Below are positions 16,888 through 26,572 of a DNA stretch of 36,903 bases, piece after piece (position 1 is the stretch's first letter; the number at the start of each line of letters is the position of its first letter). Location of the stretch: the NCBI RefSeq assembly GCF_000722635.1, contig NZ_JOKH01000012.1, forward strand, positions 11,047 through 47,949, written 5' to 3'. Below the pieces are notes generated by a model, which saw nothing but the letters and a program-made list of their open reading frames with translations, did not search any database and was not told where the DNA came from. Source of the DNA: Endozoicomonas numazuensis. Its GTDB lineage: Bacteria; Pseudomonadota; Gammaproteobacteria; Pseudomonadales; Endozoicomonadaceae. The position numbers and the translations under genes were made by a program.

Positions 16888-17532
16888 TTGAAGACGGTTG
16901 CAGTCATCGACTATGGAATGGGAAATCTTCACTCTGCCAGTAAGGCACTGGAGCACGTGGCCAGCAGTGATACCCGTGTGAAAGTGACTTCTGATCCAAA
17001 AGTTATTCAGCAGGCTGATCATGTAGTGCTGCCAGGTGTTGGTGCTATCCGTGATTGCATGGCCGAAATTCGAGCCAAGGGTGTTGATGATGTGGTGCGG
17101 GAAGTGGTCGAAAGTCAGCGCCCGCTGCTGGGTATTTGTGTCGGCATGCAGGTCATGTTGAATCACAGTGAAGAAAATGGTGGTGTTGATTGTTTGGGTC
17201 TGATGCCTGGTCGGGTCAAGTTTTTTGGCAAGGGGCTGGTGGATGAATCCGGTGAAAAACTGAAAGTTCCTCATATGGGCTGGAGTCCGGTTCAGCAGCA
17301 TCGTGATCACCCCCTCTGGAAAGACATAGAAGACAACTCCCGTTTCTACTTTGTTCACAGCTACCATGCTCATGCCAACGACGATGCAATGGCCGTGGGT
17401 CGTTGTCATTACAATGTGGATTTTGATGTGGCTCTGGCCCGGGACACTATTTTTGCTGTGCAGTTTCACCCTGAGAAAAGCGCTGAAAGCGGCCTGAAGC
17501 TGCTTGAAAACTTTTTGAACTGGAATCCTTAG
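16888..17532 (+). CDS. hisH: Imidazole glycerol phosphate synthase glutaminase subunit HisH
   Basis: 214 residues of a class-I glutamine amidotransferase that supplies ammonia to HisF. Oxyanion segment LPGVGA is at 48-53, nucleophile GICVGMQ at 82-88 (Cys84), and the His/Glu pair in HPEKS at 194-198. All triad residues are present. The start is TTG 16888, with GGGGAG at good spacing and no nearby ATG; the protein then begins [16 protein letters not shown], as in the family. A dispersed hairpin element with TATAAA lies directly upstream and might affect its expression. Its partner hisF lies 676 bases downstream, past a DUF4870 gene and a MITE-like element. Confidence 0.97.
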
Positions 17533-17543
17533 GAACAGAGTTC

Positions 17544-17927
17544 ATGGACAGAGACTCTTTACATCAGCTTATGAAAACGCCTGATTCTGATGAGAAAAAC
17601 TGGGCGATGTTCTCTCATATTCTGACACTGTTTGGCTGTTTTATTCCCGGCATCAACGTGGTCATCCCTCTGTTGATCTGGTATCAGAAAAAGGAAAAGT
17701 CTCCGTTCATAGCATTGCATGCTAAAGAGTCCCTGAATTTCCAGATTACAGTTTTGCTCGTTATTGCGGCATGGGGCTTACTGAGTGCCGTGTTGATTGG
17801 GTTGATTTTTCTTCCCTTGATTCCGTTTGCTGTTGTTTTTGCGCTGGTCTTTGTGATCCGTGCCAGCATAAAAGCCAGTCGTGGTGACGAATATCGTTAT
17901 CCAGTCTGTCTGCGTCTGGTCAATTGA
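17544..17927 (+). CDS. DUF4870 (Tic20-like) membrane protein
   Basis: 127 residues that match the layout of DUF4870: an N-terminal DEKNWAMFSHILTLFGCFIP, then IPLLIWYQKKEKSPFIALHA with the conserved K-E-S-L-N-F-Q stretch, then two hydrophobic helices and a positively charged end. It is a small inner-membrane protein of unknown function. ATG 17544 follows AGGA at 9 bases and starts 11 bases after the hisH stop, so it is probably cotranscribed with hisH. It occupies the position where hisA is normally found. The palindromic MITE-like element begins 5 bases after its stop. Confidence 0.8.
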   Translation: MDRDSLHQLMKTPDSDEKNWAMFSHILTLFGCFIPGINVVIPLLIWYQKKEKSPFIALHAKESLNFQITVLLVIAAWGLLSAVLIGLIFLPLIPFAVVFALVFVIRASIKASRGDEYRYPVCLRLVN

Positions 17928-17932
17928 ACCTT

Positions 17933-18100
17933 CTAGGAGCCTGACCAAGAATAGCGTCCGAGCATAAAATTCAGTAGAACGAGTCAGCTTTTTCACTGAA
18001 TTTGTGCGAATAGTTGACCTATTTAAGCAAATTCATCGGAAAAGATGGCCGTTCTTTCTGGATTTTAGGCCGGGCTGTCTATTCTTGGTCAGGCTCCTAG
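17933..18100. mobile_element. 168-bp palindromic MITE-like element
   Basis: The two ends are perfect 22-bp inverted repeats (17933-17954 and 18079-18100) containing GGAGCCTGACCAAGAATAG, bounded by CTAG on both sides, which could be a 4-bp target duplication. Inside, further pairs (TGAATTTG 17997-18004 with CAAATTCA 18028-18035; AATAG with CTATT near the centre) show that the two halves are diverged mirror copies. No frame is present. This is the structure of a non-autonomous element moved by a transposase elsewhere. The parent family is not identified. Confidence 0.8.
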
Positions 18101-18110
18101 TGGTTCAGTG

Positions 18111-18202
18111 AAATGACAGCATGTGCGAAGAAAAACATTTTGTCTGACCTTCGATGATTAAAAGAGAAGAGACAAAGTGTTTTTCACTATAAATAGAGAG
18201 GC
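18111..18202 (+). repeat. Dispersed box-hairpin element, copy B (before hisF)
   Basis: A diverged box (ATGACAGCATGTGCGAA, 18113-18129) is followed by a 16-base arm GAAAAACATTTTGTCT (18130-18145), which pairs with AGACAAAGTGTTTTTC (18170-18185) with a single G.U. TATAAA starts 2 bases after the right arm (18188-18193). The hisF ATG is at 18209 with GAGAGG between. It lies just after the MITE-like element but is separate from it. Confidence 0.65.
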
Positions 18203-18208
18203 CATTCA

Positions 18209-18982
18209 ATGGGCTTAGCGAAAAGAATTATTCCCTGTCTGGACGTTGATAATGGCAGGGTGGTTAAAGGCGTTCAGTTTGTCGATATTCGTGATGCGGG
18301 TGATCCCGTCGAAGTAGCTCGTCGATATAACGAAGAAGGGGCTGACGAAATCACCTTTCTGGATATCACAGCCAGCCATGAAGATCGCGACACCATGGCA
18401 CATACCGTTGAGCGCATGGCCAGTGAAGTGTTTATACCTCTGACAGTAGGTGGTGGTATTCGCAAGGTGGAAGATATTCGCACTATGCTGAATGCCGGCG
18501 CAGACAAAGTCAGTATCAATACGGCGGCTGTCTTTAATCCAGAGTTTGTTCAGGAAGCAGCAGATCGTTTTGGCTCCCAGTGTATTGTGGTCGCCATCGA
18601 TGCCAAGAAAGTCAGCCTGTCGGGAGAACCTGATCGTTGGGAAATATTCACCCATGGTGGCCGTAAACCCACTGGTTTTGATGCGGTGGGGTGGGCGATT
18701 AAGATGGAACAGCTTGGCGCTGGAGAGATTCTGCTGACCAGCATGGATCAGGATGGTGTAAAAAATGGCTACGATATTGGCGTGACTCGGGCTATTTCTG
18801 AAGCGCTGGACATTCCTGTGATCGCCTCCGGTGGTGCTGGTAACCTGGATCATCTGGTTGAAGGTGTGAAAGAAGGTAAAGCTGATGCCGTTCTGGCTGC
18901 GAGCATTTTCCACTTTGGCGAGTACTCTATCCCTGAAGCCAAAGCGTATATGGCTAAACATGGCATTGAGATGAGACTCTGA
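18209..18982 (+). CDS. hisF: Imidazole glycerol phosphate synthase cyclase subunit HisF
   Basis: 257 residues, the usual size. This TIM-barrel enzyme joins PRFAR with ammonia from HisH to form imidazole glycerol phosphate and AICAR. The protein opens [21 protein letters not shown] with the catalytic Asp of CLDVD (Asp12-type), has [12 protein letters not shown] at about 78-90, VAIDAKK at about 129-135 with the second catalytic Asp, and [10 protein letters not shown] near 206-215. GAGAGG lies 8 bases before ATG 18209. A strong hairpin follows the stop. hisA, which makes its substrate and normally precedes it, is not in this window. Confidence 0.98.
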
Positions 18983-19024
18983 AACGATGGAAGGAAAGAG
19001 ATTAAACTCTTTCCTTCCATCGTT
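18983..19024. terminator. 18-bp perfect hairpin between convergent genes
   Basis: AACGATGGAAGGAAAGAG (18983-19000) is exactly complementary to 19007-19024, with loop ATTAAA. It starts directly after the hisF stop and ends 10 bases before the stop of the convergent AlbA_2 gene. There is no good U-run on either strand, but place and stem strength suggest a two-way transcription stop or mRNA end structure. Confidence 0.65.
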
Positions 19025-19034
19025 CTAAGGTGTT

Positions 19035-20189
19035 CTATTTTTCTTTACGTAAAATGATTACTTTAAAGGTGTTTGAATCTCGATCATCAATAAAATCTAT
19101 ATGTGGATAAGCTTTGATTGCTCGCTTGATTCCACTACCAAGACCACGATATGGCAATAACTTGGGGGCAAATGATGCAAGAATGGGGTTGCGGACATTA
19201 GAGTTCCCCATTTTTATATTGTCTACCGTCAGATTATTCGGTAAGTGTCCTGGACTGATAATTTCAATTCGATCAGCAAACACTAATAGTTTTACAGGCG
19301 CTGAGATAAAGTAATCTCTGTGTATTAGCGCATTGGCAATGAGTTCTTCAAGAACAATTCGTGGTATTTCAGGCTCGCCAGTAGAATTAAACCCTTGTTC
19401 TTTTTGAATATGTTTAAGATTCGATAGCACAAACCCTAGAGATTGCTGAAAAACATCGGTTAGTTTTCCCTTAACATCTTGGCTATCAATATATTGATCA
19501 TCCTCAATATATAATCCCGGAAAGGCAACCGCTTTGACGATGAAAACAGGTAGCCGAATTTGCGGGCGAGAGGAAAATAGCAATGTGCCTGCAATATTCA
19601 GTAAGCCATCTTTCGCCAGGTTCATGTTTTCCAATAATTGTGAGCGTGGAACATGCTGCTGTTCGATAGACTCTCCGTATTCTCGTTCAAAGAAGGCATC
19701 AAAAGATTCTTCATCAATCTCAGCTGTAAAAGAGTTTTGCACCGATGATTCATCAGCGTGCACTAACCCTGCCTCCTGAAACATCCGCTGCAACTCCTCT
19801 CGAGCTGTGACTCTTCTCTTATCAGAACCACTTTTTACCCAAATGTAACCACTTGAGTCCATGTAGGGTTTGACTAAACCGGCTTCTACAGTCAGTACGA
19901 GAACTTTTCCGGCAGGAAGGGAAAAATTCTGGGTCATAGGGTTAATTGATGGCTTCACGTTGTTTGTTGCAGCATTGGCAATATCTTGATTTATTCTTCG
20001 TAACTGATCATCAGAAAGCCCTGTTATAGTGCCATCATCATTGACACCAATGAGAATATGTCCACCTTTTGAGTTGCTAAAGGCAGCCATTTCCGATGCT
20101 AACGAATTAACGTTGTTTATAATTGCTTTAAACTGGTGCCTGGAATCTTCACCATTGGCAATAATGCCTAAAAGTTCTTCGGTTTCCAT
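19035..20189 (-). CDS. AlbA_2 (Schlafen-like) and HATPase domain protein
   Basis: 384 residues. The N-terminal AlbA_2 domain (about 5-130) has the marks E-x-x-x-HQFK, then EMAAFSNSKGGHILIGVND and later GYIWVKSGSDKRRVT. This fold binds nucleic acid and is related to the Schlafen core. A middle region (about 150-260) follows. The C-terminus is a HATPase_c_4 module of the RecG-like/GHKL type: EELIANALIHRDY at 281-293, ISPGHLP at about 311-317 and GLGSGIKRA at 349-357. Such proteins are often called transcriptional regulators or RNA-binding proteins and are common in defence islands. The start overlaps the 3' end of the PHP-ATPase gene by 22 bases, so the two are almost surely coexpressed and probably act together. 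Confidence 0.85.
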   Translation of the reverse strand: METEELLGIIANGEDSRHQFKAIINNVNSLASEMAAFSNSKGGHILIGVNDDGTITGLSDDQLRRINQDIANAATNNVKPSINPMTQNFSLPAGKVLVLTVEAGLVKPYMDSSGYIWVKSGSDKRRVTAREELQRMFQEAGLVHADESSVQNSFTAEIDEESFDAFFEREYGESIEQQHVPRSQLLENMNLAKDGLLNIAGTLLFSSRPQIRLPVFIVKAVAFPGLYIEDDQYIDSQDVKGKLTDVFQQSLGFVLSNLKHIQKEQGFNSTGEPEIPRIVLEELIANALIHRDYFISAPVKLLVFADRIEIISPGHLPNNLTVDNIKMGNSNVRNPILASFAPKLLPYRGLGSGIKRAIKAYPHIDFIDDRDSNTFKVIILRKEK

Positions 20190-22795
20190 GCTTCGTATAC
20201 CTGTTTACGTTTCTCAAAAGCTTCTGCTCCGCCTTCCATGACTCCAACAATTCGTTGCTGTATTTTAGAGCAGTCAATACTTCCATTAATAGACTGGACC
20301 TTATCATCCAAATACTCGCAAGCAATGACTAGTTCTGCATCGCCCAATACCGGAATATTTGCATTGTGTGTCGCAAAGACAAACTGAGTTTCTGGTTTTA
20401 ATTCCTGTATTAACTTGATTACATCATCATAGATAGTTTGGTTATCCAGGTCGTCTTCTGGCTGATCTATGATAACAACATCATTTTCTCTCTGACTTAA
20501 AACAAAGAGCATGAGTGCAGAGGCTCTCTGGCCTAAAGAGTGATGAGACAAGGGCTTATTGTGATATTTAATGGTATAAACATTAGGCACCTGCCACGTG
20601 AGTAGTACATCTAATTTATCCTCAAAGTACTGCCAAAAAGTATCAAACGAGCCACCCAGAATGGATTGTAGTTTATCTTTTTCACGCCACATGGCTCCAA
20701 AGTCGCTAAACTCATCCACTACGCTTTGGAGTGTTGCCTCACGAATACGACTCCCTCGGTACAAGTCCTGAATATGCTTGAGCATAGCAGCTTTGTTGGC
20801 TTTGAAATCTGGTAGTATTTTCAAAGGAGAGTCAACTTGGTTAATTTTATTCAGGATTTGTTCGATAGCACGATACTCGTCTAGCCATAAATTATTGAGA
20901 CTAGCCAATTCCTTCACAAGTATTTGACCAAGATCGGCATATTGTTGCTCACTCTTGGCTAATACTTCTAGCATTTGTTCTGCTTGGTCCAGTAAGGATT
21001 TTAGCTGCTTAAACTCTTGTGGACTGATCGCCTGTGCGCCTGCTTGCTTGAGTTCTCCGGCAAGCTTTCGTTCTATTTCTGCAAACTCTTCTTTAAGGGC
21101 CAGTTTTTGCTCACTGAAGGCAGTAAGTTTGTCTCGCAATTGTTGCAATGTAGCCTGACCATCAGTAGCTACCTGCTTTATGCCATCAAAGTCAGTTAAT
21201 AGTCTTTGGTAGGCGGTAAAAAAGTCATCAAAAAACGGCTGATTCTGTGGTGATTTATACAGAGTCTGATTTTTTATCTCATCTTCAAAATTAGCTATAA
21301 AGCTGTTCAATCTAGATAAGTAATCATCAGCACCCAGAATAACTTGTTGTGCTTTTCGTTCATCACGATCAAAATCAATCTGTTTTTGTAGCTTGGTCTC
21401 GACGCCATGTTGCTGATAAAATTTCAATTTAAACTCAGAATCTTGCTTTTTCTGTGTCCACTCCTGTTTTTGAGATACTGCTCGATTAAGCCTCTTGATC
21501 TGACGAATAGCATCCAGCACATTGTTTTGACCCTGCTCAATTTTTTCACGGACTGGGACAAGTGACTCTCCTACCAGTTTTTCGATCAGGTCTTTTTCAA
21601 ACCCTGCACCGGTACTGGAAAGGTCTTTTTGGCCAAAATAGATGGGCTGGTGGAGGACTGTTTCTCGGATAGAAACTCCTGGCTGTAATTGCCCGTTGAC
21701 ATAAACATCCGGTCTTTCGCCTAGAATCCTGCGAATTTGATAAGGCTGGCCTCGGCGGTCGATGGCATCAATGGTTATTTTTCCACCACTATGTAACAGG
21801 TGCTTAACAAGACCTTCCTTATAATCAATATCGGAGGCTTTTGCTCCAAAGGGAATGTTCAATGCATAGCGAATTCCTTCAAGAACTGATGATTTCCCAC
21901 TACCTCGAATGCCTATTAAAGTATTTAGTTCAGGCGAGAGAAATATTTCAGTACCACCCAAGGTGCCAGCACCTTCAAAGCTGACTTTCTTAATATAGGA
22001 GTGGTGATATTCCGGTCTAACAGAACTAACCCTGGCTTCTTTGTCTCGGAGGGCAAACTTAACAGCTTCGAAACTAAAAGCTCCTAGTTTTAAAAAACTA
22101 GCCTGTTTTCTGGCGGACATATCTGCCAAATGCTTAGCATCACACCCTTCGACTTCTGCTGGGTAGAGAGTGCCCAATGCTTGTTGGATCTTTTCTCGAC
22201 TATCTCGGGTGCTCACCTTTTGAAATGCCAAAGCCCTGCGCTGAACGGCAGTATTGTTAAATAGCTCTTTAATTCGGCCTGGTGATAGTCCGCCCCACAA
22301 ACCATTGGGTGCCTCTACATGGGCAAAAATCAGCAAATAGTCTTTTTGGAGTTTATCCAGTTCCCGGACAGTTTCTACTATATCGTGATTAGAGCGGGCA
22401 TTCTCATCTTCAAAGTTAGCAACTCCTGCAAACGTCAGATTTAAAAAAGTTTGTATATGATTAGTTTGCTCTTTGTTGTCAAACCACTCGTCAGAAAATA
22501 CGACCAGGGTATGTACACCTGATTGCCCATCCTTGACTGACAGCTCGATACCTGGCAATAAGCCAATACCGGACTTTTTGGCTTTCTTTCGCAGAGCCTT
22601 GAACTCAACGAGACCAAATTTGTTATGGTTGGTAATTACCCCAAGACCAATGCCTGCACTCAGCAGAGCTTTCACATATTGATTAAGGTAATCATTATCT
22701 TCACCTGTATAGCGGAACTCTTTATCTGCTCGCGTATGCAGGTGAAAATCTGCCTTCAACCATTGGCTACCATTTTGAAACGGATTTAGACTCAT
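20168..22795 (-). CDS. TrlF-type protein: PHP domain fused to SMC-like ATPase
   Basis: 875 residues. The N-terminal PHP phosphoesterase domain has ADFHLHTRAD at 15-24, ITNHN at 54-58, GIELS at 82-86 and FAHVE at 157-161, the four metal-binding motifs. An ABC/SMC-like ATPase follows: Walker A GIRGSGKSS at 295-303, a long coiled-coil-rich arm (about 400-690), signature SLGQRAS at 753-759, Walker B VVIIDQPEDDLD at 773-784 and switch His in FATHNAN near 810. All key motifs appear intact, so an ATP-gated nuclease or phosphoesterase acting on nucleic acid is likely. PHP-ABC proteins are known from studies of bacterial conflict systems. ATG 22795 has AGGAGG upstream. The AlbA_2 gene overlaps its end. 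Confidence 0.87.
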   Translation of the reverse strand: MSLNPFQNGSQWLKADFHLHTRADKEFRYTGEDNDYLNQYVKALLSAGIGLGVITNHNKFGLVEFKALRKKAKKSGIGLLPGIELSVKDGQSGVHTLVVFSDEWFDNKEQTNHIQTFLNLTFAGVANFEDENARSNHDIVETVRELDKLQKDYLLIFAHVEAPNGLWGGLSPGRIKELFNNTAVQRRALAFQKVSTRDSREKIQQALGTLYPAEVEGCDAKHLADMSARKQASFLKLGAFSFEAVKFALRDKEARVSSVRPEYHHSYIKKVSFEGAGTLGGTEIFLSPELNTLIGIRGSGKSSVLEGIRYALNIPFGAKASDIDYKEGLVKHLLHSGGKITIDAIDRRGQPYQIRRILGERPDVYVNGQLQPGVSIRETVLHQPIYFGQKDLSSTGAGFEKDLIEKLVGESLVPVREKIEQGQNNVLDAIRQIKRLNRAVSQKQEWTQKKQDSEFKLKFYQQHGVETKLQKQIDFDRDERKAQQVILGADDYLSRLNSFIANFEDEIKNQTLYKSPQNQPFFDDFFTAYQRLLTDFDGIKQVATDGQATLQQLRDKLTAFSEQKLALKEEFAEIERKLAGELKQAGAQAISPQEFKQLKSLLDQAEQMLEVLAKSEQQYADLGQILVKELASLNNLWLDEYRAIEQILNKINQVDSPLKILPDFKANKAAMLKHIQDLYRGSRIREATLQSVVDEFSDFGAMWREKDKLQSILGGSFDTFWQYFEDKLDVLLTWQVPNVYTIKYHNKPLSHHSLGQRASALMLFVLSQRENDVVIIDQPEDDLDNQTIYDDVIKLIQELKPETQFVFATHNANIPVLGDAELVIACEYLDDKVQSINGSIDCSKIQQRIVGVMEGGAEAFEKRKQVYEAWKPKNF

Positions 22796-22818
22796 TGACC
22801 ACCCTCCTGAATAGATTT

Positions 22819-22854
22819 TAAACAGCTATGAGTGAAGAGAACAGTCATGAGCGA
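22819..22854 (+). repeat. Two box motifs of the dispersed element (copy E)
   Basis: TAAACAGCTATGAGTGA (22819-22835) and AACAGTCATGAGCGA (22840-22854) are tandem variants of the box seen before hisH, serB and the ynjB-like gene. Here no clear hairpin or TATAAA follows, and both neighbouring genes run on the other strand. Confidence 0.5.
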
Positions 22855-22872
22855 AAATAACAGAATCATCGA

Positions 22873-24183
22873 TTATTGCTCCAGTTCTCGACTGATGGAA
22901 TAAGCCTCCTGTTGTATCGCTTCCTGCTGCTCAGCAGGTATCCCGGTTATTTCCACAATATCTTCACCGTGTTCACTGATCTTTATTTCAGGCTCTCCGG
23001 CTGGCAGCCAGTTGAGTTGATCGCGAAACATGTGAATGTTTTCTGGCCCAGGCAAACTGGCCAGCATCAGTGCACTACTGGCTGCGCTATCAGATTGTGA
23101 AGGGTGCTCTGTACCAGGAAAATCATTGATACCGTCACTGACACAAACACCGACGCCCATTTCCAGTGAAGCAATATTTTGCTCACCAACGACCCGGTTA
23201 AGGCTTTGTATCAACAAGGCACAGCTCAGTGCATCCATGGCAAACGAAGCACTTTCCAGACTGGAAAATCGAATATACGCAGTACCATCCGGGGTATAGC
23301 TCAATTCTCCCTGATACTGTTGAGCCGCACGATCCAGTGCTTCACTGTGAGTCTCAATAATGTGCATCAGGTCATGAGGCGCCAGCAGTTGTCGCAACCG
23401 GGTCATATTTTTATTGCGGACACTGATAATGGCTGAGACTTCCTCTTTTTCTTCTTCCTCGGGCTCCGGTTCAATAGAGCCCATCAGTTTTTCGGTCAGC
23501 TGCTTTTCTACAAAACCAGAGAGCCGAATAATTTCATTACGACAGGAAATCGGGTTCGCAGGTGATTGCAAGATGGAATGCAATTGTCTTTCAATAAGGC
23601 TGAGTCTGAGTGTGACATTGGAGGCAAAGAAGTAGAGTAATAACAATCCACTGATCAGCAAGATGACACTGATGGTAATAATCAGTGTCAGAGCATCACC
23701 AGGGTTTCGAGTCAGTAAACCTTTATCCAGCTGCAAGCGAACATAGCCCGCGATCACATCCTGATAATGGATAGGAGACGAATAGGTTTCACCCTTCTTA
23801 CCCACTCGATCACTTTCTGAAGACGCTATCTCGCGATTGTCGATACTGTAAATAGCAGCTTTGGCAACATAGGGGTTTTGAACCAGTTGCCCCAGCAGAA
23901 CATTGAGACTGAGCCTGTCTCCAGTGACCAGCATATCTGTAGCCGCGCTGGCCGTCTGGGCACTGAGAAGGTTGCCAATAGAGTCTGCCTGATGGCGATT
24001 GGCCGACGCCAGTTCACTGCTGACAAGAAAACCGGTAGACAGAGTCAGAGCAGAGAAAAGGACGCCAAAAAGCAGCAGCAATTGCTGACGAAGAGACAGA
24101 GCTTCTGATTGCCTGGCAAACAGGTTGATTATTTTTTTCGGCAATGACAAGGCCGAACCTCCCGAAGCGTTGTCGAGTATCAT
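22873..24183 (-). CDS. YtjB/AhpA-like membrane protein with cyclase-like domain
   Basis: 436 residues. A membrane helix at about 33-56 (LLLLFGVLFSALTLSTGFLV) is followed by a periplasmic part of about 110 residues with TDMLVTGDRLSLNVLLGQLV and an AIYSIDNREIASSES segment, a second helix at about 168-188, an acidic linker (EPEPEEEEKEE) and a C-terminal domain (about 250-420). The N-terminal half resembles YtjB (Smp) and the AhpA proteins that lie beside serB in gammaproteobacteria. The C-terminal part has the style of a class III nucleotide cyclase fold (a strand with SVRNKNMTRLRQLL, helix, then TPDGTAYIRFSSLESASFAM) but I do not see the metal-binding Asp pair, so it is probably a degenerate sensor domain. 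Role unknown. Confidence 0.6.
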   Translation of the reverse strand: MILDNASGGSALSLPKKIINLFARQSEALSLRQQLLLLFGVLFSALTLSTGFLVSSELASANRHQADSIGNLLSAQTASAATDMLVTGDRLSLNVLLGQLVQNPYVAKAAIYSIDNREIASSESDRVGKKGETYSSPIHYQDVIAGYVRLQLDKGLLTRNPGDALTLIITISVILLISGLLLLYFFASNVTLRLSLIERQLHSILQSPANPISCRNEIIRLSGFVEKQLTEKLMGSIEPEPEEEEKEEVSAIISVRNKNMTRLRQLLAPHDLMHIIETHSEALDRAAQQYQGELSYTPDGTAYIRFSSLESASFAMDALSCALLIQSLNRVVGEQNIASLEMGVGVCVSDGINDFPGTEHPSQSDSAASSALMLASLPGPENIHMFRDQLNWLPAGEPEIKISEHGEDIVEITGIPAEQQEAIQQEAYSISRELEQ

Positions 24184-24430
24184 TCTTCATTTAAATTAAA
24201 TACAGGTAATAGCGGAATCTTAGCGGGAGGCTCTGGCAAATACTACAGACATGTCTGATCTTGAGAGAACGGTTACTTAGTTCAAAAGGACTATAAGCGA
24301 AAAAAATCACAGTGATACGATAATTTTTCGACCACACTTCAGATGGTTTTCAGGAGCTCGTCGCAAGCCGAAAGACTCCCGGCAGTACCCATCGGGAAAT
24401 AATAAAAATAAATACCCGGGACTTACACAC
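24184..24430. other. Divergent intergenic region, no gene seen
   Basis: About 250 AT-rich bases between the YtjB/AhpA-like gene (-) and the TonB receptor gene (+). I see no frame and no strong promoter or Fur-type palindrome. Confidence 0.4.
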
Positions 24431-26572
24431 ATGTTAAAACCCACTGTCAGGACACCTCTTGCTCTGGCTGTTGCCGTTGCTTTGTCTTCAGGACAGGTTT
24501 ATGCAGAAGCAGGGGCGCTGGAAGAAGTGATTGTTACTGCTCAGAAGCGTGAACAAAACCTGCAGGATACCCCTGTTTCTGTTTCAGCCTTTGGTGCAGC
24601 CGCTATTGCTGATCAAAACATTCAGGATGTGGCTGATGTCAGCCAGTATGTTCCCAATGTTGAAATTGCTGAGACACCCGGTGGCAGCACCGGAGCTACG
24701 ATCAGTATTCGGGGTTCTGTTTCCATCAACCCTGCAGTGACCTGGGAGCCTCCGGTCGGCATCTATGTTGATGGTGTCTTTGTTGCCAAGAACGTGGGCG
24801 GATTGTTTGATGTGGCTGAGCTGGAGCGAATCGAAGTCCTTCGTGGACCCCAGGGAACGCTCTATGGAAAAAACACCATTGGTGGTGCGATCAACCTGAT
24901 TTCTAAAAAGCCTGCCGAAGAATTTGGAGGAACTCTGAAAATCTCTGCAGGTAACTACCGCTACAAGGAAGGTTTTTTTAGCCTGAATACCGGCAGGCTT
25001 GCTGATAGAGCGGCTTTTAATGTGGCGTTGAATGTACGAAAACGCGACGGTTTCTATGAAAATACATCCACTGCAGCCGGCGCAGTTGATGACTATAAAA
25101 AACTCGATACTCAAGCTGCCAGAATAGCCGGTTCTTTTGACATTACTGATCGTCTTGAAGCGTATTACATTTTTGATCAGAGCAAAAAAGATAACACCCC
25201 GGCCTTTGGGCAGTTTGATGCAGCAGGCAGTTCATTCGAGAAAAAAGATAAAGGGGCCAATGACGGCTCGATAGAAGACAGCTCGTCAACGAGTGGGCAT
25301 GCCTTACATCTTACTTATGATCTGGCCGACAACATTACGCTTAAATCCATTACGGCCTATCGCTCAATGAGCTTTGAAGATGCGGGGGATTATGACGGAA
25401 CAGGCGTAGCTGGTTTTCATACACGCAGGGATGTCGATTCTGATCAGGTTTCTCAGGAGTTTCAGCTAATAGGCAATGCGGATCGATTCGATTATGTGCT
25501 GGGTGCCTTTTACTTTAAGGAAGAGTCGGGCGCCAAAAACCCCTTTGATATAGGTGGTGTGGAAGGGCTGGTCAAAAATGGCTATGGCGTTGACAGTCAG
25601 TCCTATGCGCTTTACGGGCAGGCTGATTATTATTTGACTGACCAATGGACTCTGACAGGCGGTGCCCGTTGGACTAAAGAAGAGAAAGAAGCCTACATAG
25701 AACGAGTAGATGGAACTGGTGTTGGTTTTGGTGGCAACATTCCCCGAACCAAAGCCAAAGATGACTGGACTAATGTATCACCTATGGCGGTGCTGACTTA
25801 TGCTTTCTCTAATGAAGCCAGTGCTTATTTTAAAGTGTCAAAGGGGTGGAAGGCTGGTGGCTTTAATGGTGAAGCCCAGAATGTAGATATCTTTAAGAAG
25901 TCATACGACGAAGAAACGGTGACAGCCTTTGAGCTGGGTCTGAAATCTCGTTGGATGAAGGATCGTCTGCAGTTGAATGCCGCTGTATTCCAGAACAATG
26001 TCAAAGACATGCAGTTATCTAACTACCTTGGGGCTTATTCATTGATTGAGAATGCCGGTGAAGCCACGGTTAGAGGACTGGAATTGGAAGTGTTGGCGGC
26101 ACTCACGGATAGCCTGACAGCGAACCTGAACTACGGGTATCTGGATCCAAAATACGACAGCTTCAAAGATCAGGCTGGCAATGAACTGAAAGACGTCAAT
26201 AAATTCCCTTATGCACCCAAGACCAAAATCTCTGCAGGTTTGGAATACAAGCAAAGCCTGGGCTTTGCTCATCTTGTTGGCCGGTTGGATTACAGCTGGG
26301 TGGACAAGTACTACGTCTATCATGAGCCTGCCACTGCAGAGCTGACAAAGTCCGGAGATTACCGCCTCTGGAATGCTCGCATCGCTCTGGAGGATATTCA
26401 GGTCGGTACGGATGAGTCTATTGAAGTGGCCATTTGGGGCAAGAACCTGACCAATGAAGAGTACCGGGTTAACGGTGTGCCGGTGGCTGATCAAAACGGT
26501 AACTTTGTAGGAGCTGCCAATTATTATGGTGATCCCAGAAGTTATGGTATTGATGTCGCTTATCGGTTCTAA
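24431..26572 (+). CDS. TonB-dependent outer-membrane receptor
   Basis: 713 residues. The signal peptide ends near VYAEA, the TonB box region is ALEEVIVTAQKREQNLQD (about 29-46), and the plug domain shows SVSAFGAAAIADQNIQDVAD, then VYVDGV-like GIYVDGVF and the classic RIEVLRGPQGTLYGKNTIGG (about 136-155). The remaining ~500 residues alternate beta-strands of a 22-strand barrel and end in YGIDVAYRF with the terminal Phe needed for insertion. It takes up a large or scarce ligand (iron chelate, cobalamin, carbohydrate or other) using TonB energy. The ligand cannot be told: no transport genes are adjacent. No strong ribosome site precedes ATG 24431. A good terminator follows. Confidence 0.93.
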   Translation: MLKPTVRTPLALAVAVALSSGQVYAEAGALEEVIVTAQKREQNLQDTPVSVSAFGAAAIADQNIQDVADVSQYVPNVEIAETPGGSTGATISIRGSVSINPAVTWEPPVGIYVDGVFVAKNVGGLFDVAELERIEVLRGPQGTLYGKNTIGGAINLISKKPAEEFGGTLKISAGNYRYKEGFFSLNTGRLADRAAFNVALNVRKRDGFYENTSTAAGAVDDYKKLDTQAARIAGSFDITDRLEAYYIFDQSKKDNTPAFGQFDAAGSSFEKKDKGANDGSIEDSSSTSGHALHLTYDLADNITLKSITAYRSMSFEDAGDYDGTGVAGFHTRRDVDSDQVSQEFQLIGNADRFDYVLGAFYFKEESGAKNPFDIGGVEGLVKNGYGVDSQSYALYGQADYYLTDQWTLTGGARWTKEEKEAYIERVDGTGVGFGGNIPRTKAKDDWTNVSPMAVLTYAFSNEASAYFKVSKGWKAGGFNGEAQNVDIFKKSYDEETVTAFELGLKSRWMKDRLQLNAAVFQNNVKDMQLSNYLGAYSLIENAGEATVRGLELEVLAALTDSLTANLNYGYLDPKYDSFKDQAGNELKDVNKFPYAPKTKISAGLEYKQSLGFAHLVGRLDYSWVDKYYVYHEPATAELTKSGDYRLWNARIALEDIQVGTDESIEVAIWGKNLTNEEYRVNGVPVADQNGNFVGAANYYGDPRSYGIDVAYRF

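What the first reader, a model, noticed from the sequence alone, without database searches (positions are those of the whole stretch)
19035..22795. Two-gene PHP-SMC ATPase (TrlF-type) and AlbA_2/HATPase unit: candidate defence system
Seen: two minus-strand genes overlap by 22 bases, between the end of hisF and the YtjB/AhpA-like gene. The first has all four PHP metal motifs and full Walker A, signature and Walker B motifs around a long coiled-coil arm. The second has a Schlafen-related AlbA_2 nucleic-acid-binding domain plus a HATPase module. Known: PHP-ABC proteins and AlbA_2 proteins are recurrent in bacterial conflict systems. Inferred: together they form a sensor (SMC-like ATPase), an effector (PHP nuclease or phosphoesterase) and an RNA- or DNA-binding partner. 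The pair as a unit is, to my knowledge, little studied.
Basis: partly seen in the sequence, partly recalled or inferred. Interest (0 to 1): 0.75.

Follow-up and report, generated by a model that had tools for sequence, protein, structure and literature searches.

The report
TrlF-TrlG growth-arrest gene pair
Two overlapping bacterial genes form a known, mobile pair that stops growth when an insect bacterium is warmed; relatives sit inside DNA-restriction operons and on plasmids, so it is probably an anti-virus switch rather than a new kind of system.

Summary
Window 20168-22795(-) encodes an 875-aa PHP + SMC/Rad50-like ATPase and 19035-20189(-) a 384-aa Schlafen-AlbA_2 + HATPase protein, overlapping by 22 nt. 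The first passes the curated "TrlF family" model (572 bits, cut-off 350). The pair is in print as trlF-trlG of the Temperature Restricting Locus (TRL) of Photorhabdus laumondii (PMC7554251), where trlG mutations abolish growth arrest at 36 C. So it is a new member of a known kind.

New here: (1) the pair lies between hisF and ahpA in 2 of 11 genomes of the genus; the other nine hold nothing or another gene. (2) Close relatives sit inside type I restriction-modification operons and on plasmids; TRL itself looks like a stripped restriction operon. (3) TrlF and TrlG co-diverge (r = 0.94). (4) TrlF keeps the PHP ligands of anti-phage Ppl, while TrlG has Gln where Schlafen RNases need Glu. So the likely nuclease is TrlF, yet published genetics puts arrest on TrlG.

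Defence is the best reading, but I found no phage test.

The parts
20168..22795 (-). trlF: 875-aa PHP phosphoesterase + SMC/Rad50-like ATPase with coiled coil
   Evidence: NF045780 572 bits, cut-off 350; ORF
22046..22765 (-). PHP domain (aa 11-250); ligands D16 H18 H20 H57 E84 H95 H159 D219
   Evidence: fold match to PHP of DNA polymerase III alpha and RNase AM
21890..21913 (-). Walker A GIRGSGKS (aa 295-302)
   Evidence: invariant in 20 rows, coordinates
20597..21601 (-). long helical coiled-coil arm (about aa 399-733)
   Evidence: predicted helices H399 to H728-733, coordinates
20519..20539 (-). ABC signature SLGQRAS (aa 753-759)
   Evidence: invariant in 20 rows
20444..20482 (-). Walker B and D-loop DVVIIDQPEDDLD (aa 772-784)
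   Evidence: D772 and I776-D784 largely invariant in 20 rows
19035..20189 (-). trlG: 384-aa Schlafen AlbA_2 + HATPase protein
   Evidence: 73-74% identical to copies in four Photorhabdus species
19809..20150 (-). AlbA_2 (Schlafen) domain, aa 14-127; E14, Q19, K21, D51
   Evidence: triad mapping
19107..19301 (-). HATPase_c_4 (GHKL-type) domain, aa 297-361; N-box NALIHRDY lies just upstream at 19311-19334
20168..20189 (-). 22-nt overlap of trlF end and trlG start
   Evidence: the same overlap in e.g. L008, L009, L013
18983..19024 (.). perfect 18-bp inverted repeat with 6-nt loop between convergent hisF and trlG, possible shared terminator; the terminator scan did not list it (no T run)

Best explanation
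A horizontally acquired accessory module of the TrlF-TrlG (TRL) kind that most likely acts in anti-phage or anti-plasmid defence by stopping growth. TrlF is a Ppl-like enzyme: its SMC-like ATPase head and arm read nucleotide state and DNA or RNA ends, and its PHP site is the one nuclease site of the pair with all ligands present. TrlG is a Schlafen-type nucleic-acid-binding GHKL ATPase, translated coupled to TrlF, whose action is needed to arrest growth; TrlF senses and probably controls it. The module is typical cargo of type I restriction operons; the window copy and the Photorhabdus TRL are two stand-alone derivatives. Shown here: domains, residues, patchy site, plasmid and restriction context, co-divergence. 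Shown in print for Photorhabdus: growth arrest needs trlG. Inferred: defence, PHP exonuclease activity of TrlF, control of TrlG by TrlF, and any activity of the window copy.
For: TrlF model 572 bits over a cut-off of 350 and partial homology to Ppl. All eight PHP positions equal Ppl's. Ppl is described in a review as a 3'-5' ssDNA exonuclease held back by NTPs and released by nucleotide depletion plus 3' ends (PMC12904381, section 5 read). Present in 2 of 11 congeners at hisF-ahpA. 41% G+C against 47% for the window and synonymous divergence from G003 lower than that of hisF (0.56-0.65 against 1.00, one core gene only). Type I restriction genes beside the pair: by tblastn with a few query lineages, HsdM or HsdR at 100 bits or more in 7 of 22 paired loci, many on short contigs; complete operons in L009, L021 and plasmid L123; IncC plasmid L088. 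TrlG tree: the window groups with restriction-embedded L008, L009, L016 (6 rows, 98/97) and Photorhabdus with restriction-embedded L010, L011, L012, L021 (8 rows, 100/97). TrlF and TrlG distances correlate at r = 0.94 over 22 distinct pairs of the window's clade and 0.98 over all 45, 0 of 2000 permutations reaching either. In print: trlG suppressors, none in trlF, arrest with most cells viable (PMC7554251). All 14 distinct alleles from the sequenced clones in trlG has probability 6e-8 if both genes were equal targets per base; 7 of 11 missense positions are invariant in my alignment, p = 0.005.
Against: I found no phage or plasmid assay of any TrlF-TrlG pair: the TRL paper does not contain the word phage. 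The window pair has no restriction genes and no trlR beside it. TrlG of this clade has Gln at the second Schlafen glutamate, so how it arrests growth is unexplained. Many TrlG homologues lack TrlF (28 of 50 loci) and many plasmid TrlF lack TrlG, so the two are not an obligate unit. The TrlF model is of modest quality (pLDDT 71, pTM 0.41).
Confidence: 0.55

Rival explanations
1. One reading: TrlF is both sensor and killing effector (PHP nuclease), and TrlG is only a loader or targeting partner that binds nucleic acid.
For: PHP ligands intact and equal to Ppl's while the Schlafen triad of TrlG is broken at Q19. TrlF occurs without TrlG on conjugative plasmids, so it can act alone, as single-gene Ppl does (review PMC12904381).
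Against: In Photorhabdus, loss-of-function suppressors of arrest hit trlG and not the 2.3-fold larger trlF (6e-8 under equal per-base targets). If TrlF were the arresting effector its loss should also suppress.
Confidence: 0.25
2. A host-physiology device: a temperature or stress response that sets a growth limit, not a defence system. This is the authors' reading of TRL.
For: Operon induced on shift from 28 to 36 C and in stationary phase; arrest depends on it (PMC7554251).
Against: Patchy, mobile and restriction-linked distribution; 2 of 369 sampled genomes of the class carry a close TrlF, the own genome included. Heat may merely trip a defence switch.
Confidence: 0.12
3. An accessory of restriction-modification itself, for example a control that stops self-restriction or arrests the cell when restriction goes wrong.
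For: Complete HsdM-(YhcG)-HsdS-TrlF-TrlG-HsdR-YgjP operons and trlR upstream of hsdM.
Against: Stand-alone copies in the window, in G003 and in Photorhabdus keep the coding frames without any Hsd gene beside them; window against G003 dN/dS about 0.1.
Confidence: 0.08

Closest known systems
Temperature Restricting Locus (trlR-trlF-trlG) of Photorhabdus laumondii, PMC7554251
   Same: Same two proteins in the same order: AlbA_2 14-128 and HATPase 298-365 in print against 14-127 and 297-361 here. TrlF 80% and TrlG 73-74% identical to copies in other Photorhabdus species. All 13 published TrlG positions carry the stated residue in L013.
   Different: No trlR in the window, and the site is hisF-ahpA instead of polA-dsbA. 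P. laumondii's own sequence was not compared.
Ppl anti-phage protein (NF042955)
   Same: PHP + coiled-coil ATPase of similar length; same eight PHP positions; partial match 1.7e-49.
   Different: Score 169 against a cut-off of 1000; Ppl is single-gene (review).
Schlafen-histidine-kinase-like backup effectors of BREX and related systems (PMC12839542, passages)
   Same: AlbA_2 + GHKL module placed as an extra gene inside a defence operon.
   Different: Those are described with a C-terminal wHTH and as RNases. Window TrlG has no C-terminal extension and has Gln at the second catalytic Glu.
TrlG homologues with a Fic-like_C extension (L028-L056 group)
   Same: About 50% identical, same Q19; restriction genes beside 8 of 19.
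   Different: About 100 aa longer; TrlF adjacent in 0 of 19.

Membership tests
TrlF family (NCBIfam NF045780) | Whole-protein score over the curated cut-off of 350 bits | tested here: met
   572 bits
TRL (TrlF-TrlG) pair | Adjacent co-oriented trlF and trlG with the published TrlG domain layout | tested here: met
TRL (TrlF-TrlG) pair | trlR regulator upstream | tested here: not met
   tblastn with TrlR at E 0.01 found nothing in window 18001-25000; ahpA ends 77 nt upstream of trlF
TRL (TrlF-TrlG) pair | Causes growth arrest on temperature up-shift | not testable with these tools
   published for P. laumondii only
Ppl | Ppl equivalog score over the cut-off of 1000 bits | tested here: not met
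   169 bits
Ppl | PHP metal-ligand set | tested here: met
   same eight letters as L129
Ppl | NTP-inhibited 3'-5' exonuclease | not testable with these tools
   known to me for Ppl from review text only
Schlafen RNase | AlbA_2 fold | tested here: met
   Pfam 2.3e-21; Foldseek matches to SLFN14, SLFN13, SLFN12, SLFN11 and SLFN5 at E 1e-3 or better
Schlafen RNase | Carboxylate triad E205/E210/D248 of rat SLFN13 | tested here: not met
   E14 present, second Glu is Q19, Asp present as D51
Known anti-phage system in PADLOC-DB | Full-length match of both proteins to one system's models | tested here: not met
   TrlF: partial Ppl and PDC-M49A matches; TrlG: partial pAgo match

The most novel reading that the evidence does not exclude
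TrlF-TrlG is a two-layer abortive module of type I restriction operons in which the working nuclease site can lie in either subunit. The window's clade keeps the PHP site and has lost the second Schlafen glutamate, another clade has lost the PHP H-x-H and keeps both Schlafen glutamates, and a third keeps both. Of 47 pair rows where both motifs could be read, 25 are PHP+/Gln, 15 PHP+/Glu, 7 PHP-/Glu and none lacks both. Arrest by TrlG in the Gln clade, Photorhabdus included, would then not be Schlafen RNase action, and the 'temperature restriction' of Photorhabdus would be a misfiring phage or plasmid alarm left over from a lost restriction operon. Limits: the rows are related, each loss may have happened once, and L113 also has Asn at the third Schlafen residue.
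Probability: 0.3. Interest if true: 0.7.

Novelty: new member of a known kind. Interest (0 to 1): 0.45.

Why it matters
It joins two things that I did not find joined in the library searched: a growth-arrest locus studied as a temperature device, and a Ppl-like PHP-ATPase module carried by type I restriction operons and conjugative plasmids. If right, the puzzling arrest phenotype becomes testable as abortive defence, and a family that NCBI names after temperature restriction gains a plausible general function.

Tried and rejected
Housekeeping operon: rejected, 2 of 11 congeners have the pair at this site.

Obligate pair: rejected. TrlF is adjacent in 22 of 50 TrlG loci, one of them judged from a TrlF end of 46 residues at a contig edge (L025). 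Of the 28 others, 19 carry a C-terminal extension or are broken forms of that group, and 9 do not. In 14 genomes of the unpaired kind plus L025's, no TrlF was found elsewhere at E 1e-20. That call warns that an empty answer without a ringing genome shows nothing; the same query rang in the own genome, where at most two candidates a genome were scored.

Strict reciprocal loss of the two nuclease sites: rejected as a rule, because 15 of 47 readable pair rows keep both. Six of the 53 pair rows were dropped because H18/H20 could not be read (L014, L063, L080, L084, L085, L086). L040 and L117 are pairs by position but fell outside the script's gap limit and are not in the 47.

Schlafen Asp in clade C: the script's pattern missed most of the L098-L112 rows, so no count is given for them; six of the seven clade-C rows it read have Lys there.

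PADLOC: no system matched both proteins. Phage records: 7 with a TrlF match, 2 covering at least 80% of the query. Viral contigs: 11 relatives of TrlF, not examined for TrlG. Promoter scan: fewer sites than in shuffles and none between ahpA and trlF on the minus strand. The ahpA row of the substitution-rate script was out of frame and is dropped.

Literature: searches were (the ten allowed), in an open-access library only. One search listed 20 of 38 papers. The primary Ppl paper and the 2025 preprint on bacterial Schlafens were not seen; the latter is cited inside PMC12839542.
Full report
WHAT IS THERE. The two minus-strand ORFs are as reported. trlF (20168-22795, 875 aa) scores 572 bits with NCBIfam NF045780, cut-off 350, and only partly with Ppl and Spaf_1101 models. 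trlG (19035-20189, 384 aa) has SLFN_AlbA_2 and HATPase_c_4. No solved structure matched TrlF by sequence. A profile of 20 TrlF rows reached only SMC heads. The predicted TrlF model (pLDDT 71, pTM 0.41) matches SMC/MukB/Wadjet-type heads and the PHP domain of DNA polymerase III alpha and of RNase AM. The TrlG model (pLDDT 80) matches the RecG-like protein 3lmm best and then Schlafens.

IT IS A KNOWN PAIR. Hapeshi et al. 2020 (PMC7554251; abstract and outline, passages, section 7) found that spontaneous P. laumondii mutants able to grow at 36 C carry changes in trlG, part of a trlR-trlF-trlG operon between polA and dsbA. Their TrlG domain limits equal those here. Copies from four other Photorhabdus species are 73-74% (TrlG) identical to the window's, and TrlF from three of them 80%. 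The residues at all 13 published substitution and stop positions are as stated in the L013 copy, and 7 of 11 missense positions are invariant in 21 rows (hypergeometric p 0.005). The authors saw no mutation in trlF. For the 14 distinct alleles of the sequenced clones (the two separately isolated clones left out, since only trlG was tested in them), chance gives 6e-8 if both genes were equal targets per base, lengths taken from the window. They suggested that TrlF plays no role or that intact TrlG compensates; a TrlF that restrains TrlG would explain it too.

SITE. In 11 genomes of the genus, own included, hisF is followed by trlG in two (own and G003, TrlF 87% identical) and by ahpA in nine. 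Three of the nine have a short gap (G001, G006, G009), two a 332-340-aa ORF without Pfam match (G002, G004), and four a 245-aa ORF of the nitroreductase kind (G005, G007, G008, G010; two of the four checked by Pfam). G003 has a 344-aa ORF like that of G002 plus the pair, with ahpA beyond it. The nearest genome by hisF, G006, is empty. The pair has 41% G+C against 47% for the window; between the window and G003 dN/dS is about 0.10 (trlF) and 0.09 (trlG), and dS is 0.65 and 0.56 against 1.00 for hisF (one core gene, so a hint of recent exchange only).

DISTRIBUTION. A close TrlF occurs in 2 of 369 sampled genomes of the class, own included, and a weaker match in 7 more. TrlF over the family cut-off occurs in 28 of 398 genomes of the phylum, own included. 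Of the 29 loci other than the own one that one search returned (three further matches came without a locus), 18 have a TrlG-like gene beside TrlF within about 1.5 kb. On plasmids 230 records hold a TrlF over at least 80% of the query and 85 hold a TrlG to that extent. In E. coli, 160 of 5426 genomes have DNA similar to the pair, with 125 of 177 places on plasmids; none covers 80% of the pair. The annotated examples include TrlF without TrlG (L089, L092, L093) and the pair on Y. ruckeri, IncC and P. avellanae plasmids.

RESTRICTION OPERONS. The order HsdM-(YhcG)-HsdS-TrlF-TrlG-HsdR-YgjP is seen in L009 (Pfam), L021 (tblastn) and, with a PHP-degenerate TrlF, in plasmid L123. IncC plasmid L088 has HsdR-TrlF-TrlG-HsdS-ATPase-HsdM beside Tn7-like transposition genes. 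By tblastn with a few query lineages, HsdM or HsdR at 100 bits or more lies beside 7 of 22 paired loci, 8 of 19 of the extended TrlG group and 1 of 9 other unpaired loci. These are lower bounds, since many contigs are short and other restriction lineages would be missed. A TrlR homologue stands before hsdM in L021 and L123, and the Y. ruckeri plasmid has TrlR, a remnant of the first 153 HsdM residues, TrlF and TrlG. So the Photorhabdus TRL reads as a restriction operon that lost hsdM, hsdS and hsdR. In the TrlG tree the window sits with restriction-embedded L008, L009 and L016 (6 rows, 98/97), and Photorhabdus with restriction-embedded L010, L011, L012 and L021 (8 rows, 100/97), which suggests two separate exits. 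The fork that joins these two groups is weakly supported (92/68). The TRL paper notes the methylase fragments on pYR3 but does not draw this conclusion in the passages I saw.

CO-INHERITANCE. TrlF and TrlG distances correlate at r = 0.94 over 22 distinct pairs of the window's clade and 0.98 over 45 pairs (0 of 2000 permutations). The organisms range over Gammaproteobacteria, Bacillota, Planctomycetota and Verrucomicrobiota by contig title, some of them metagenome bins where misassignment is possible.

CATALYTIC SITES. E205, E210 and D248 form the triad of rat SLFN13, and E205A and E210A are fully inactive (PMC5862951, passages). A profile of Glu-type TrlG aligns these to TrlG positions 14, 19 and 51: the SLFN14 E211A chain shows Ala exactly at position 19's place, while D51 rests on counting along the alignment. 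The window has E14, Q19, D51. Every row of its clade, the solo and extended forms included, in which the motif could be read has Gln at 19; the one Glu row in that list is the second, distant TrlG copy of L016. Photorhabdus has Asn at 51 as well. The PHP positions read DHHHEHHD in the window and in Ppl, but AQNHEHHD in 7 distant pairs. So in this clade the intact nuclease site is TrlF's.

MECHANISM. Best model: a Ppl-like nuclease and sensor (TrlF) coupled to a Schlafen-fold GHKL protein (TrlG) that is needed for growth arrest. A 2026 survey (PMC12839542, passages) describes Schlafen + minimal histidine kinase proteins as backup suicidal effectors inside BREX operons, which fits TrlG's place beside restriction genes. 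What is not explained is how TrlG arrests growth without the full triad.

NOVELTY. New member of a known kind. The link from TRL to restriction operons and defence, and the alternation of nuclease sites, are the new points.

Noticed in passing
between hisF and ahpA in congeners (L066-L075): Variable slot: empty, a 332-344-aa ORF without Pfam match, a nitroreductase-family gene, or TrlF-TrlG.
   Followed up: partly
L016:8001-10438: Two TrlG paralogues side by side (Gln-type and Glu-type) inside a type I restriction operon with no TrlF beside them.
   Followed up: partly
L090:7297-8012: Y. ruckeri plasmid: TrlR followed by a decayed start of HsdM before TrlF, an intermediate between the restriction operon and TRL.
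   Followed up: partly
L026:3257-6058: Endozoicomonas bin with three tandem copies of the same frame in front of a TrlG; N-terminus replaced, possibly an assembly or repeat effect.
   Followed up: no
L124:4474-8960: TrlF on a haloarchaeal plasmid, followed by a DUF262 gene and flanked by DUF1156 and DUF499 genes, not by TrlG.
   Followed up: no
window 17544-17927: A DUF4870 gene lies between the ORF just downstream of the hisB-like gene (16888-17532) and a gap before hisF, within the his gene cluster; also present beside hisF in the congeners.
   Followed up: no
PDB 9ylu: A bacterial AlbA_2 structure labelled CbCash matches the mixed TrlG profile (2.8e-5); its paper was not seen.
   Followed up: no
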